Source of the DNA: Stichopus chloronotus
Taxonomy: Eukaryota > Echinodermata > Holothuroidea > Aspidochirotida > Stichopodidae
Reading direction: 5' to 3'
Length of the DNA stretch: 64,000 nucleotides
Assembly (NCBI GenBank): GCA_021234535.1
Contig: CM037830.1
Coordinates: forward strand, 36,456,937 to 36,520,936
Shown here: one piece after another, positions 6,901-42,900 of the stretch
Position numbering within the stretch: the first letter of the stretch is position 1
Layout of the letters: every line of letters begins with the position of its first letter
Translations under genes and position numbers: made by a program
Notes under the pieces: generated by a model
What the model was told of the DNA's origin: nothing
The model's input: the letters and a program-made list of their open reading frames with translations, nothing else
Databases searched by the model: none

Positions 6901-9900
6901 CAGAAACAATATCATTTTTGTCATGTTTTCTGTAATCTAGATGCGGCATGATTTACATGGAGCCCTCACAGCTTGGTTGGCGCCCTTTGGTTGAGTCATG
7001 GCTGGAACATTCTATTCCTGACTTTGTGACCAGCTCTCAAAAGGAAATTATCAGGGTGAGGAAATGAACAACTATCAGCACTATGATTCACCATGATATT
7101 TAATTCTTAGATAACATATTTTTGAAAGTTTTGTGAAAAGAAAGTTTTTGCAAAATGTTTGAGGATGCTTTCTGTGTTTGTTGCTTTCAACTTATGTTTA
7201 GCCAATGACAGAAGAGAACAAATGAGGATGCTTTTAGTTTTATGTTTTGTGTCCACATTTTTTTAGATCCTTCAGGAATCTTAAACTTTAACCTATGATA
7301 GCCATCAAGCATCTGGTCTCTACTAATCTACTTTAAAACATTTCATGTTGCACTTGGTCTAGCGATGAGGTACCAAAGAAAAAGGGTTCTCATTTGACAA
7401 TGTGTCTGAACAAAGAATACACTGAAATGTTACAGGAAAAGCACTGTTTTGTTTTGAGGCCATTTTATCATCAACTTCTCTCAATGGTTCTCTTTCTAGC
7501 TGCTCTGTGAATGGTTGCTTCCCCCATGTGTGAACCATGTGATCAAGAACTGCCATCAATCTGTCACCATGTCCTCCATGCATATGACCATGAACTTGAT
7601 CAAGCTGTATGGGTCCTTGTTAGATGATATCAGGTAGGTGGCATTTTTTCATTCAATAGCTGTTTGTGTATCATAAACTGGAAAAGTTGTTAGATTGATG
7701 TGAGAAATTCTTTGATGACACTATTAAAATCTTATGACCAGACAAATACCCAGCCCTCCACCAGACAGACACCTCCATGGACAGATACCTCCAGAAATAG
7801 CCCCATTACCTGGTGGTGAAAGTCCATGGGGTATTTGTCCTGGGAGGGGGGTGATTGTCGGGTAGCCTGAAAAGCAATGCTATAATGTACTTTCAAGATT
7901 ATACCAATGTGATTATTGTCTTATTGCTATAATTATAGTTGTGGCAGCTGATGTAAGCTAATGAAATAAAATGAAATTTGCAACTTGCAAACACAATAAT
8001 TTTTTTTTGAAGTAAGTCAAAGTTTTCATCATCTATGGGGCAGGCTAGCCAACGTGTGAAAGTGAGGGGCATCAAAGAATGTAAAGTGTTTCGCTTTACC
8101 AGCATTCGTAGCCTTCTCTAGGAAGTCCTCCCTTTCACAAAGGCTGGTCACAAATGAGCCAAGACATCCTTCTCCAAATCAGTTCCTTTTGTCTTATTTC
8201 TCTCTTTCAGGCTTGGTTTAAGTGATGATTGAGAAAATGTTCACAACATGTCAGAATGCTACTAAGCTGTTATTGTTTGTGTTTTTTTATAGGGTTGCTC
8301 ATTTGTTTGTTTGTTACATTGTGTTCATTGGTGGTTGGTCAGTTACCCTGGTGGGTAGTATGGTAACACCAACCGTGAACCAAAAAACATGCATTTAAGT
8401 AAAAGTTATCACCAAACATTTCCTGTCTCTATTCATATCTCAGTTTTTTTTTTATGTTTGTTCATTAACATATGTTGTCCTTTTCTTTTGTCACCTTATC
8501 CTTTTTGTTTACCTTGCGTTTGACACCGATATCTCTGCACTCCTGCACATGGCCAATTAACCTTTGACCTTTAACATCTTGTTTGATTGATGATGTGTCT
8601 CCTCCAGAGCTATTCAGAACCCAGATGAGTAAGTACCCTCCAGCTTTGAAAGACCTTTTGCAATCTCATCCCCCAATTCCTATATCCCCTCCATCCCTAT
8701 CTGACCTTCCTTCCTTTGTCTTTGGTCACATCTGGGGTGTTCATTCTTGTGGTACCAATTTCAAAAAAATATACCATCTCCCCTGTCAGTTTTCCTATGA
8801 AAAATATGCAAGCATGTGATTAGCTGCATTGTAATATTCCCAAGACATATATGGACCAGTGCTGTTAGTACAGATTGCCTCATTGCTTGCTTCTCATGAT
8901 ATTGGTCATGCCACTTGGGGATAGTCCCCAAAAAACTGGCCACTTTCATGAAAAATTGGCCACTTTCATAAAAAAAACTGGCCACTTTCATGAAAAACTT
9001 GCCACCTTCAACAAAAAAAGCTGGCCACTTTCTTTTGTTTCAGGTCTGGAAATGACCTATCATTACTATGAACTTTGAAGAAAATTTTCTGGATGTTTTG
9101 CACCTTACATTTCATGAAGTTACCATCCATACCATTACACTGCACATTCAAAGCTCAATTAAATCCCCTCACTTTGTGGAAGGTTCTCTTTTTGGGGTTC
9201 TTTATTTTTTACATTCTGCTAAGTTTTCCATGGTTGTAGAAACAGAGTTTGGTAGGTGACAATATCTTGTATTTGAAATTGTGATGTGATTCTCTAAGTA
9301 AAAAAAGGAAATGCAGGAATTGATAGTAAACTGAAAATTTGCGTTGTTCGTTCCTAACTGAACTTAAACTGTAAGAGCAATGATTGAACAGTGAACTTGT
9401 CTCCATGGTAACCTGTGATAGTTTTTGCAAATCTTTCTACAGTGTGCACTATTTGGACCAATTAAAATCACAACGCAGTATCACAGAATAACAAAAATAA
9501 AGAGATCACAGCATGGTGTCATTTGCATTGTTAAGATCTTTTGTTTTGGCCCCAGAAATGTGTAGATGTTTTTTTCTCTAGCAGTCATTGTATTGAAATG
9601 TTTCATACCAATAAATTACACTTCACTCTTGCTCAGACTACATGCCTAAAGCTTTTCTCTCAAAGATGCAGGGCTCTTTCAATATGTTTTACACACGGAG
9701 ATGACCAGAAAATTTCTTACTTTTTATCCTTCTTTGACCTGCAGTGACTCAGACAGCGATTATGAAATCGATGAGGAGGAAGGAGAACCGGCGGAGTTAA
9801 AGGAGGAGAAGGAAGAGGAAGGAGAGAAAGCTCCGTCTCTAACAGAGCAGAGGATTCAAGAGGAGAGAACAAACATGCTCATCTGTAACTTTCTCTTCTC

Positions 9901-39900: not shown

Positions 39901-42900
39901 GTCTTCATGAGAATGCTGACATAAGTAAGGACCAGAAGGAGACTCTGTCTCTGTTTGATGGCATCCTGTTGACTCTACCAAGACAGGTTTGTAAAACAAA
40001 AAAAAATCAAAGGTATCACTGCTATCAAATTATAAAAAGGGGTTAATACATTTTTTGGCGTACAACACTTTTAAAAGGAGTTGATTGTGTCATTACTATC
40101 AGATATCCAGTTATGCATATTTATTGTACATGTAAATTCGTTGTGGTCCATTCTGAAGGCCTCCCATACAAATAGGTTACTCAGCATAGGTGCTCTAAAA
40201 TGATTTCCATGCCTTACATTTCATTTGGACCAGACAGGGTTACTTTGACATCATCTTTACTATTTTCATCCATGTGTACTCAAGTTGTTTTTTTTTTTTC
40301 CTTTGTTCTTTCATTCATTTATATTGACCATGTATAATATCTTTCTCAGATGGAATTCATGACAATATATTCACATCACAGTTCTTTATATATTGCACAT
40401 TCGAAACTTTTGACATATATATGCTTTTCTTCTTTTCCTGTTATTTTTGTTCCATTCATACCCCCCATCTCACCTCTCTGCTACCCTGCTGCCAATGTAG
40501 ACTGCCGAGGTAAGTCATAGACAGACCACCATTGCTCATTGCTTACCATTGACCACCATTGCATACAATGCATGCATCACATTTAAAGGTGGAGGGTTAG
40601 CCCCAATAGTACAGGAGTTTCATTAGCATGTATTACCATAGTTAAGTATGCTGCACGCACAAGATAGATGCTTTCCAGTGTGAAAATGTTAAGGGATTGT
40701 TCTGGTTGTCTGTCGGATAACCAAGTTTCCAAGATTTGGTTGTCCTTCTGACATTTTGGTTGTCCTGCATCCAGAGACTGCAAAGAGGAGAATGTGAAAT
40801 ACAACACTTCTCCTGCAATATCAGATTGATTCAATGCTATAATGAACATTCCACCCTCATCCAATTTCATATGACTCTTCAATCTTCTGAGCTTGTCTAG
40901 AGATTCTTATCGTCCACCAGGCAACCGGGCTACCAGGTATTCATGATTGGACAATTTGGGGTTGCCTGGTGGCTATTTTGATTGTCTCAGATGACCACTT
41001 AAATTTATACAATGCCTACTTTGCAAGGTAGTCAGGCCTAAAATCTGTTTACTGACACATTGTAGTGCATGAAGTGTGACCAGTCTCCTTTGTGTTAGGT
41101 ACAAAGATTTTTTTAGCAAGGAATGACTTTTTGGTGTATAATATTTTCTGTAAGACTGTGTAGTTCCTTCTAGAGGTTATGTAGAAAGAATTTACAACAT
41201 AACATCAAATGCATGTAAATATATGAAATCTGTAAAATGAATGATGAACTTTATCATGCATGCTTTCTTTGCACTTACCACAAAATAACACCGATACAAA
41301 AGTATGACATAGAACATAAGTTTGGTCAAGATAAAAGTGAAAAGTCAAATGATGTTCTTATTTTAAGATATTTTTGCCTACCATACCATTGTGTTTCTTT
41401 GAACATGATTACTTTCAGGATGCACAGGCCTCCACAACCGTTGCTTTTTCAGTCAGTCTATAATGCTACCAAAAGAAATTTTCTTCTTTTTAACAGAATA
41501 TAAAAGCTAGAACCACATGAAATAATTCTACCTGTAGTAATATTCTTATTTTTATATACATTTTTGAAAATAATGACATAGCTTCCTTTTCAACCGCAGT
41601 CATCCGGTTCATCTGGACGTTCATCCCAACAAGTCATCGAGGACCTTGCATCAGACATTCTCTCCAAGTTGCCGCCAAATTTTCAGCTGGATGAAATTCA
41701 GGTGACTTTGTAAATCTGTATACTGACTCATTGTTCAAGCAAGTGGAAAGTTTATGAAAACCCACATTCCCACATATTGAAAGGAAGTTTGGGGCAAATT
41801 GCTTTTTTGCCATCCTTTGGTATTATAGTCGTATTTTTGGTATTTATATGATCGTATAGTGTACTGAATTTAATTCATTACTAGATGAGCAAAGGGCTTG
41901 AAAACATTTTTTCCTCTGGTTGCTTTTGTTTCTCTTTTTTTTTATATTTTATTTTCATTGAATTTGTTTTATTATGTTGCGTAAAATTTATATTGTACTG
42001 CTGTCTTTATTTGTATTCTGTGGATACTGTTTAAAATTTTCTGTGCTTTTCTTCCTTTTGTTGTTTGTTTTTCTTAGTTAACATTCATTTGTTGTATTCT
42101 ATATTCTCTATTATAAACATTCCATCATGTTTGTTTTTTATTTTCATGTTTGTTTACCTCCCATGTTACTGTAAGTAGACCTAAGTATCTTCCTTATTGC
42201 TGTTCCTGTACTTGTGTGCTACACCAGAGAATGTGTCCCATTTACTGGTCTTTTATCTTCTTTACATCATATGCCATATGAAATGTTCATTGTATCATTT
42301 CTGTTCTTGTATGTTTTTATCCATTGTGTTTTACCAGTGCATGACAAATTGTTTTCTCTTTGTTATGTGTGTGAAGTATCCTGACCATCACTGTACTTGT
42401 TCTGTGTATTCTGTATCTCACTCTTCTGTAATTCTGTCTTAATGTTCTTCTTGGTAATTGTTCTCTCTATGTTTTTCTAGCTTGAGTATCCTTTTAGTCA
42501 CTATTTATCTTCTCTGTTAAATACCTTTGTTTATCATTCCTGGTCTTGTTTTACATTTTCTGTGTTTTTACTTGAGTCCGTATCCTGTCCTCTTCTTGTG
42601 TGTGTCGTCAGTGATAAGTCTCTAGTTTACAATTCATGTTTTTGTCCATTTGTCTCTGCTGTTTTTTCCTTAGTCTAAGTATCCTGTCTTATATGAAGAA
42701 TCCATGAACACCGTTCTTCTTCAAGAGCTGATGAGGTTCAACCGTCTGCTGGATGTGGTGAGGTCCAGTTTACAGGACATCCGGAAAGCTCTGAAGGGAC
42801 TGGTGGTGATGTCATCGGAGCTGGAGGACGTCTTGGATAGCATGCTGGTTGGAAAGGTTAGACGAGCAGCTAGAGAGACTCAGTTGATCCAGTAACAAGT

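What the first reader, a model, noticed from the sequence alone, without database searches (positions are those of the whole stretch)
8608..40509. A set of phase-symmetric micro and cassette exons in one axonemal dynein motor
Four exon-like blocks of 21, 39, 51 and 9 nt (8608, 14990, 31658, 40501) all have good acceptors and donors, are multiples of three and have the same phase on both sides. They fall in the AAA2-AAA3 linker, the AAA3-AAA4 junction, the AAA5-AAA6 connector and a Ser/Gly loop of the C-terminal domain, not in an ATP-binding core. With the triplicated donor in the stalk, this could let one gene make many dynein isoforms that keep the motor core but differ in regulatory surfaces. 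Microexon programmes are well known in neurons, much less so in axonemal motors.
Basis: partly seen in the sequence, partly recalled or inferred. Interest (0 to 1): 0.78.

Follow-up and report, generated by a model that had tools for sequence, protein, structure and literature searches.

The report
Ancient cassette microexons in ciliary dynein
A sea-cucumber gene for a ciliary motor protein carries four tiny coding exons (9 to 51 bases) that match segments present in some echinoderm relatives and missing, at the same boundaries, in others; they are therefore likely to be spliced in or out, which would let one gene build several versions of the motor.

Summary
The window holds 59 modelled exons (AAA1 to the stop codon) of a sea-cucumber DNAH3-like inner-arm dynein heavy chain. 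The four blocks at 8608, 14990, 31658 and 40501 are there: the only modelled exons of 60 nt or less, all phase-symmetric, and all 16 include/skip combinations stay open. Splice sites alone were weak evidence: two donors rank near the bottom and introns hold similar pseudo-exons. Protein relatives decide the case. Apostichopus and Holothuria models contain or lack the same peptides at the same boundaries, and the 13- and 17-residue cassettes recur, present or absent, in sea urchin, starfish and crinoid models. Over the motor, 13 ambulacrarian DNAH3-like models show 59 indels of 3 residues or more, 36 at exon junctions; the sister paralog DNAH3 in seven ambulacrarians shows one. In this genome the sister gene has no intron at two of the sites and introns without a detectable copy of the cassette at the other two. 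The 39-nt exon looks like a partial copy of the exon before it. Inclusion and skipping within one animal, tissue specificity and effect on motility are not shown. The triplicated stalk donor gained no support.

The parts
388..49158 (+). DNAH3-like (paralog B) inner-arm dynein heavy chain gene, 59 modelled exons from AAA1 to stop; the 5' part lies upstream of the window
   Evidence: Gene model (exon 38 corrected to 27587-27673 after the alignment); best hit P0001 A. japonicus DNAH3-like isoform X3, 94%; tree
8608..8628 (+). exon 12, 21 nt cassette (RAIQNPD), phase 2/2, AAA2-AAA3 side
   Evidence: RAIQNQD in A. japonicus P0001; exactly 7 residues missing in Holothuria leucospilota P0002; in the sister paralog there is no intron here
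13620..13711 (+). exon 20, whose last 13 codons resemble exon 21 ([13 protein letters not shown] / [13 protein letters not shown])
   Evidence: best of 2718 windows of the protein; DNA-level match among the top 3 of 1714 placements under a mild scoring, not under a strict one
14990..15028 (+). exon 21, 39 nt cassette ([13 protein letters not shown]), phase 2/2, AAA3-AAA4 joint
   Evidence: Present in 7 and absent in 6 of 13 ambulacrarian DNAH3-like models; no comparable insert in the 62 other proteins aligned
31658..31708 (+). exon 42, 51 nt cassette ([17 protein letters not shown]), phase 0/0, AAA5-AAA6 connector
   Evidence: Exactly 17 residues in 8 of 13, 54 residues in 1, absent in 4 of 13 ambulacrarian DNAH3-like models; absent in the 62 other proteins aligned
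40501..40509 (+). exon 52, 9 nt microexon (TAE), phase 0/0, Ser/Gly loop at the start of the C-terminal domain
   Evidence: TAE in H. leucospilota, absent in A. japonicus X3, TAE plus 20 residues in two starfish, AGE in a crinoid; no intron here in the sister paralog
21857..21939 (+). 27-nt tandem repeat (3.1 copies) that triplicates the exon 29 donor in the stalk; not supported as part of the cassette set
   Evidence: no insert at this junction in 75 of 75 relatives aligned
36886..37181 (+). intron 46, GC-AG, 296 nt, the site where 8 of 13 ambulacrarian DNAH3-like models carry a 78-265 residue insert in AAA6

Best explanation
The four blocks are coding exons of a sea-cucumber DNAH3-like inner-arm dynein heavy chain, as their match to relatives' proteins shows, and are likely optional cassettes, spliced in or out independently and likely inherited in part from the echinoderm ancestor. 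Each is a multiple of three with equal phase on both sides, so inclusion or skipping leaves the motor frame intact and only lengthens or shortens a joint or loop: the AAA2-AAA3 lid (7 residues), the AAA3-AAA4 joint (13), the AAA5-AAA6 connector (17) and the Ser/Gly loop at the start of the C-terminal domain (3). Shown: the exons, their frames, and their presence or absence at exact boundaries among relatives' gene models. Inferred: that one animal makes several forms, so that up to 16 variants of this part of the motor are possible. Predicted: that insert length at ring joints tunes coupling between AAA modules or contacts with neighbours, so that different ciliated cells could use different versions. 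The 39-nt cassette probably arose by partial duplication of the 3' end of exon 20.
For: Phase and frame. Presence and absence at exact boundaries within sea cucumbers: A. japonicus isoform X3 has exons 12, 21 and 42 and lacks 52, H. leucospilota has 42 and 52 and lacks 12 and 21. Across ambulacrarians: exon 21 present in 7 of 13, exon 42 in 8 of 13 at exactly 17 residues plus 1 of 13 longer. Lytechinus variegatus X7 and L. pictus X12, 99.4% identical over 2813 aligned residues and neighbours in the tree, differ by exon 42, by 14 residues at exon 52 and by 260 residues at junction 46/47. Loss alone would need four independent losses for exon 21 and four for exon 42 on that tree (my count). Control: sister paralog DNAH3, 7 ambulacrarians (6 compared with the seventh), mean identity 0.818: 1 indel of 3 or more residues; DNAH3-like, 13 models (12 compared with the thirteenth), mean identity 0.802: 59 indels, 36 of them at exon junctions and 23 in the acidic loop of exon 13 (split by hand). 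Eight of the 13 models carry isoform numbers, up to X12. In the same genome the sister gene has no intron at the exon 12 and 52 sites and introns of 265 and 1746 nt at the exon 21 and 42 sites, against intervals of 2733 and 3306 nt here. The PDB DNAH3 chain 8j07_g3 and its near-twin 9fqr_Xx (deposited under another molecule name) show gaps of exactly 13 and 17 residues at exons 21 and 42.
Against: No RNA reads were seen. Each relative is one cluster representative, so two isoforms of one species were never compared directly, and gene models can err. Donors of exons 12 and 21 are weak, as are the acceptors of 42 and 52. Exon 12 aligns with residues of the PDB DNAH3 chain (DEIRAV) and is missing in only 4 of 13 models, so it may be nearly constitutive; the alignment around it is uncertain outside sea cucumbers. 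Exon 52 is too short for homology beyond TAE/AGE to be firm.
Confidence: 0.8

Rival explanations
1. The exons are constitutive in each species that has them; differences among relatives reflect lineage-specific exon gain and loss, not alternative splicing.
For: Only one representative protein per cluster was visible; no species was seen in two forms.
Against: Needs four independent exact losses each for exons 21 and 42, and three simultaneous differences between two Lytechinus species whose aligned residues are 99.4% identical. The sister paralog, at similar divergence in ambulacrarians, shows 1 indel.
Confidence: 0.12
2. Annotation noise: predictors in some species added or missed small exons, and one true form exists.
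For: Short exons are often missed by gene predictors (general knowledge). Splice-site scores alone do not separate the 21-51 nt blocks from intronic look-alikes.
Against: The same peptides are recovered in several classes of echinoderm, exon 42 at 17 residues in all 8 echinoderm models that have it; missed exons should also occur in the sister paralog, which shows 1 indel in 6 comparisons.
Confidence: 0.06
3. The blocks are intronic pseudo-exons that are never spliced in.
For: The introns hold similar chance candidates, 10 forward and 5 reverse for 9-60 nt at comparable scores.
Against: All four peptides occur in protein models of relatives at the same position, whereas 13 of the 16 chance candidates listed, tested by their first five residues, occur in none of the 13 relatives.
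Confidence: 0.02

Closest known systems
Drosophila Dnah3 (CG17150) 39-bp extra exon, antenna versus testis (zur Lage et al. 2019, author recalled; PMC6367277)
   Same: A small extra exon in a DNAH3 heavy chain transcript, included in antenna and not in testis; RT-PCR evidence (section 19 read; passages).
   Different: One exon, the penultimate, so near the C-terminus and not at the ring joints; an insect. That it has the length of exon 21 looks like coincidence. What I read reports no conservation across species.
Mutually exclusive exon of Schistosoma mansoni cytoplasmic dynein heavy chain (PMC3228551)
   Same: Alternative exons in the middle of a dynein heavy chain (passages read).
   Different: Cytoplasmic dynein and a swap of homologous exons of about equal length; here extra residues are inserted, even though exon 21 resembles its neighbour.
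Neural and photoreceptor microexon programmes (SRRM3/SRRM4), recalled
   Same: Very short in-frame exons, deeply conserved, in surface loops (recalled).
   Different: No regulator or tissue was tested here. Only a hint: exon 52 has the most TGC triplets (3) in the 50 nt upstream of any of 59 exons; exons 12, 21 and 42 have 0, 0 and 1.

Membership tests
DNAH3-type axonemal dynein heavy chain | Best match to DNAH3 rather than DNAH7, DNAH12 or DNAH1 | tested here: met
   PDB searches: chain 8j07_g3, DNAH3, first for 4 of 4 pieces; protein search names it DNAH3-like
DNAH3-type axonemal dynein heavy chain | Falls in the DNAH3-like (B) clade, apart from DNAH3 proper (A) | tested here: met
   Tree of 45 rows, support 100, sister to A. 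japonicus B (quick method, midpoint root); A gene found separately in the same genome
Cassette (skippable) exon | Length multiple of three, equal phase, no stop in either form | tested here: met
Cassette (skippable) exon | Present and absent forms at exact exon boundaries among relatives | tested here: met
   firm for exons 21 and 42, within sea cucumbers for 12 and 52
Cassette (skippable) exon | Both junctions seen in RNA of one species | not testable with these tools
   no RNA reads; members of a protein cluster are not listed separately
SRRM3/4-type microexon programme | UGC motif just upstream of the acceptor (recalled) | tested here: inconclusive
   3 TGC before exon 52, the most of 59; 0, 0 and 1 before exons 12, 21 and 42
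SRRM3/4-type microexon programme | Inclusion depends on that factor | not testable with these tools
   needs RNA after knock-down
Mutually exclusive exons | Homologous exons of about equal length that replace each other | tested here: not met
   Exon 21 (39 nt) resembles only the last 13 codons of the 92-nt exon 20; models with exon 21 also contain the end of exon 20

The most novel reading that the evidence does not exclude
Echinoderms run a combinatorial splice code in one ciliary motor: conserved microexons, older than the split of sea lilies from other echinoderms and at least one born by partial duplication of an exon edge, reset the joints between the AAA modules of DNAH3-like dynein, together with a larger optional low-conservation insert in AAA6, so that each type of cilium or sperm tail gets its own version of the motor from one gene.
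Probability: 0.3. Interest if true: 0.85.

Novelty: new variant of a known kind. Interest (0 to 1): 0.66.

Why it matters
Diversity of axonemal motors is usually put down to many heavy-chain genes. If confirmed, one old DNAH3 duplicate would instead diversify by splicing at the joints of its motor ring, with cassettes kept across echinoderm classes while its sister gene, at similar divergence, stayed fixed. That makes the question of whether cilia types are tuned by motor isoforms directly testable by RT-PCR in larvae, gut and testis.

Tried and rejected
Rejected: the triplicated stalk donor as part of the set (75 of 75 relatives aligned have no insert there). Not supported: exon 42 as a duplicate of the start of exon 43; of 8 species pairs tested, the window gives p 0.40, five others 0.68 or more, and only the two crinoids approach it (p 0.07 and 0.02). 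The DNA-level match of exon 21 to exon 20 is best only under mild scoring (3 of 1714 placements reach it, 2 of these at exon 21 itself); under strict scoring 127 of 1714 windows do as well. The exon 21 duplication is strong in the two sea cucumbers and the crinoid and weak in the three starfish (31, 100 and 224 windows as good; shuffle p 0.019, 0.005 and 0.031); the segments compared were chosen by eye before the test. No trace of either peptide in the sister gene's introns (59 and 9 of 100 shuffles as good; the exon 21 test covered 261 of that intron's 265 nt). My first gene finder added exons (among them 4100, 10458, 10669, 12435, 19309, 20519, 40901, 43004, and all past 49158) that I dropped by hand, cut some exons short, and exon 38 stayed 9 nt short until the alignment showed it. 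Two fragment searches meant to find transcript pieces of this gene showed no entry named as an echinoderm DNAH3-like fragment among the 120 listed each; unnamed entries could not be placed. Structure prediction was not tried: the spliced protein is not a direct translation and the relatives exceed the length limit. Selection of rows: the 13 are the ambulacrarian DNAH3-like proteins and the 7 the ambulacrarian DNAH3 proteins that I could recognise by the visible names in the 120 listed. The printout was cut and its exon 21 and stalk blocks left out some columns, so those counts are taken from one search, which counted all 75 rows.
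Full report
What the locus is. The window holds the 3' part, AAA1 to the stop codon, of a dynein heavy chain on the + strand: 59 modelled exons from 388 to 49158 (exon 38 corrected to 27587-27673). PDB sequence searches with four pieces put the DNAH3 chain 8j07_g3 first each time, followed by a near-twin, 9fqr_Xx, deposited under another molecule name. The closest protein is Apostichopus japonicus 'dynein axonemal heavy chain 3-like isoform X3' at 94%, then Holothuria leucospilota at 90% and other echinoderms at 75-76%. 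A tree of 45 rows places the window beside A. japonicus with full support, in a clade (B) separate from DNAH3 proper (A); the molluscs, brachiopod, amphioxus, tunicates, lamprey, cartilaginous fishes, lungfish and Bombina that I gave it as 'DNAH3-like' also fall on the B side (midpoint root, quick method). The own genome (719 Mb, 267 contigs) holds the A gene elsewhere, on C1. The window is thus from a sea cucumber.

The observation. The four blocks exist as described. They are the only modelled exons of 60 nt or less; all have equal phase on both sides, and the 16 combinations read open to the same end. That 36 of 57 internal exons are multiples of three makes symmetry alone unremarkable. Site strength is mixed: the donors of exons 12 and 21 are near the bottom of 57, the acceptors of all four are in the lower third of 59, while exon 52 has one of the best donors. 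In 39.9 kb of introns there is no other 9-nt candidate like exon 52, but 8 other candidates resemble the 21-51 nt class, against 2 in the reverse complement.

Relatives decide it. Exon 12: RAIQNQD in A. japonicus, exactly 7 residues missing in H. leucospilota. Exon 21: SVSAKELLDDNMR in A. japonicus, missing in H. leucospilota. Exon 42: in both. Exon 52: TAE in H. leucospilota, missing in A. japonicus. Beyond sea cucumbers, among 13 ambulacrarian DNAH3-like models, exon 21 is present in 7 (12 to 14 residues in six; longer in the hemichordate Ptychodera) and absent in 6; exon 42 is present at exactly 17 residues in 8, as a 54-residue stretch in Ptychodera, and absent in 4; at exon 52, 8 have an insert (TAE in Holothuria, AGE in a crinoid, TAE plus 20 residues in two starfish, others of 5 to 14) and 5 have none. 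Exon 12 is missing in 4 of 13, but the alignment of that acidic loop is uncertain outside sea cucumbers, and its first residues match the PDB DNAH3 chain, so I regard it as an old coding segment that became a skippable exon. Of the 62 other proteins in the 75-row alignment, none has the exon 42 insert and none has an insert of exon 21's size at that site.

Alternative splicing or exon loss? Two Lytechinus species, neighbours in the tree with 99.4% of 2813 aligned residues identical, differ by exon 42, by 14 residues at exon 52, and by 260 residues at junction 46/47; their names carry isoform numbers X7 and X12. On the tree, loss alone needs four events for exon 21 and four for exon 42 (my count). 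The control is the sister gene: seven ambulacrarian DNAH3 proteins, mean pairwise identity 0.818, show one indel of 3 or more residues over the motor in 6 comparisons, whereas 13 DNAH3-like models at 0.802 show 59 in 12 comparisons; 23 of these lie in the acidic loop of exon 13 and 36 at exon junctions, 24 of the 36 at the four flagged sites (sums by hand). Variation of this kind, at exon edges, in one paralog, is what optional exons would give. It is not proof: each model is one representative of a cluster and no RNA was seen.

Origin. In this genome the sister gene reads straight through the sites of exons 12 and 52 without an intron; at the exon 21 site it has a 265-nt intron one codon away, and at the exon 42 site a 1746-nt intron, against intervals of 2733 and 3306 nt in the window gene, with no sign of the cassette peptides. 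The exon 21 peptide matches the end of exon 20 position by position ([13 protein letters not shown] / [13 protein letters not shown]): with the shared RS left out, the end of exon 20 is the single best of 2718 windows for both the window and the A. japonicus peptide, and no window of the sea-cucumber protein equals the crinoid's own pair. Starfish copies fit poorly, the segments were chosen by eye, and the DNA match is only modest. I take exon 21 to be a partial duplicate of exon 20's end. For exon 42 the same idea is not supported except weakly in crinoids.

How it most likely works (inferred). The inserts sit at joints of the ring and at the start of the C-terminal domain, not in ATP-binding cores. 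Adding 13 residues between AAA3 and AAA4 or 17 between AAA5 and AAA6 would change the length of a connector, and thus coupling between modules or contacts with neighbours, without touching catalysis. Independent choice of four cassettes would give up to 16 forms. Which cells use which is unknown.

Literature. Nine searches of the held library (two searches listed 25 of 28 and 10 of 77 papers) showed, by title and start of abstract, no paper on echinoderm DNAH3 splicing or on microexons in axonemal dynein heavy chains; the library lacks most subscription journals. The closest precedent is Drosophila Dnah3, whose antennal transcript has an extra 39-bp penultimate exon that testis lacks (PMC6367277, section 19 read). 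A mutually exclusive exon is reported in Schistosoma cytoplasmic dynein (PMC3228551, passages). PMC8352595 was the one paper listed for microexon plus axonemal dynein heavy chain, but 'microexon' was not found in its main text. The passages found in PMC10886578 and PMC8754002 did not report splicing of heavy chains.

Verdict. The gene is a new variant of a known kind (cell-type isoforms of ciliary dynein by small exons), remarkable for depth of conservation and for contrast with its sister gene.

Noticed in passing
36886-37181 (intron 46) and proteins P0004, P0006, P0008-P0011, P0013, P0014: Eight of 13 ambulacrarian DNAH3-like models carry a poorly conserved 78-265 residue insert at the exon 46/47 junction in AAA6, with similar ends within groups (for example GFLKQTRQ in starfish). 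It is absent in the three sea cucumbers, where the window's intron 46 is a 296-nt GC-AG intron, and in Diadema, L. pictus X12 and S. purpuratus.
   Followed up: partly
21857-21939: A 27-nt tandem repeat of 3.1 copies at 98% triplicates the donor of exon 29 in frame; 75 of 75 relatives aligned have no insert at this junction.
   Followed up: partly
10398/10907 (exon 14/15 junction): Another variable junction: 11 extra residues in Patiria, 22 in Ptychodera (DNAH3-like), 2 in two sea urchins, and what looks like the same site with 26 residues in Ptychodera DNAH3 (A), the one indel of the control.
   Followed up: partly
tree: DNAH3 has an old second copy (B side) seen in molluscs, a brachiopod, amphioxus, tunicates, lamprey, cartilaginous fishes, lungfish and a frog; the one mammal placed (Tachyglossus) is on the A side. 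Other vertebrates in the 120 hits were not placed.
   Followed up: partly
40451-40500: Three TGC triplets lie in the 50 nt before the 9-nt exon, the most of 59 exons, a weak hint of an SRRM3/4-type enhancer (motif recalled).
   Followed up: partly
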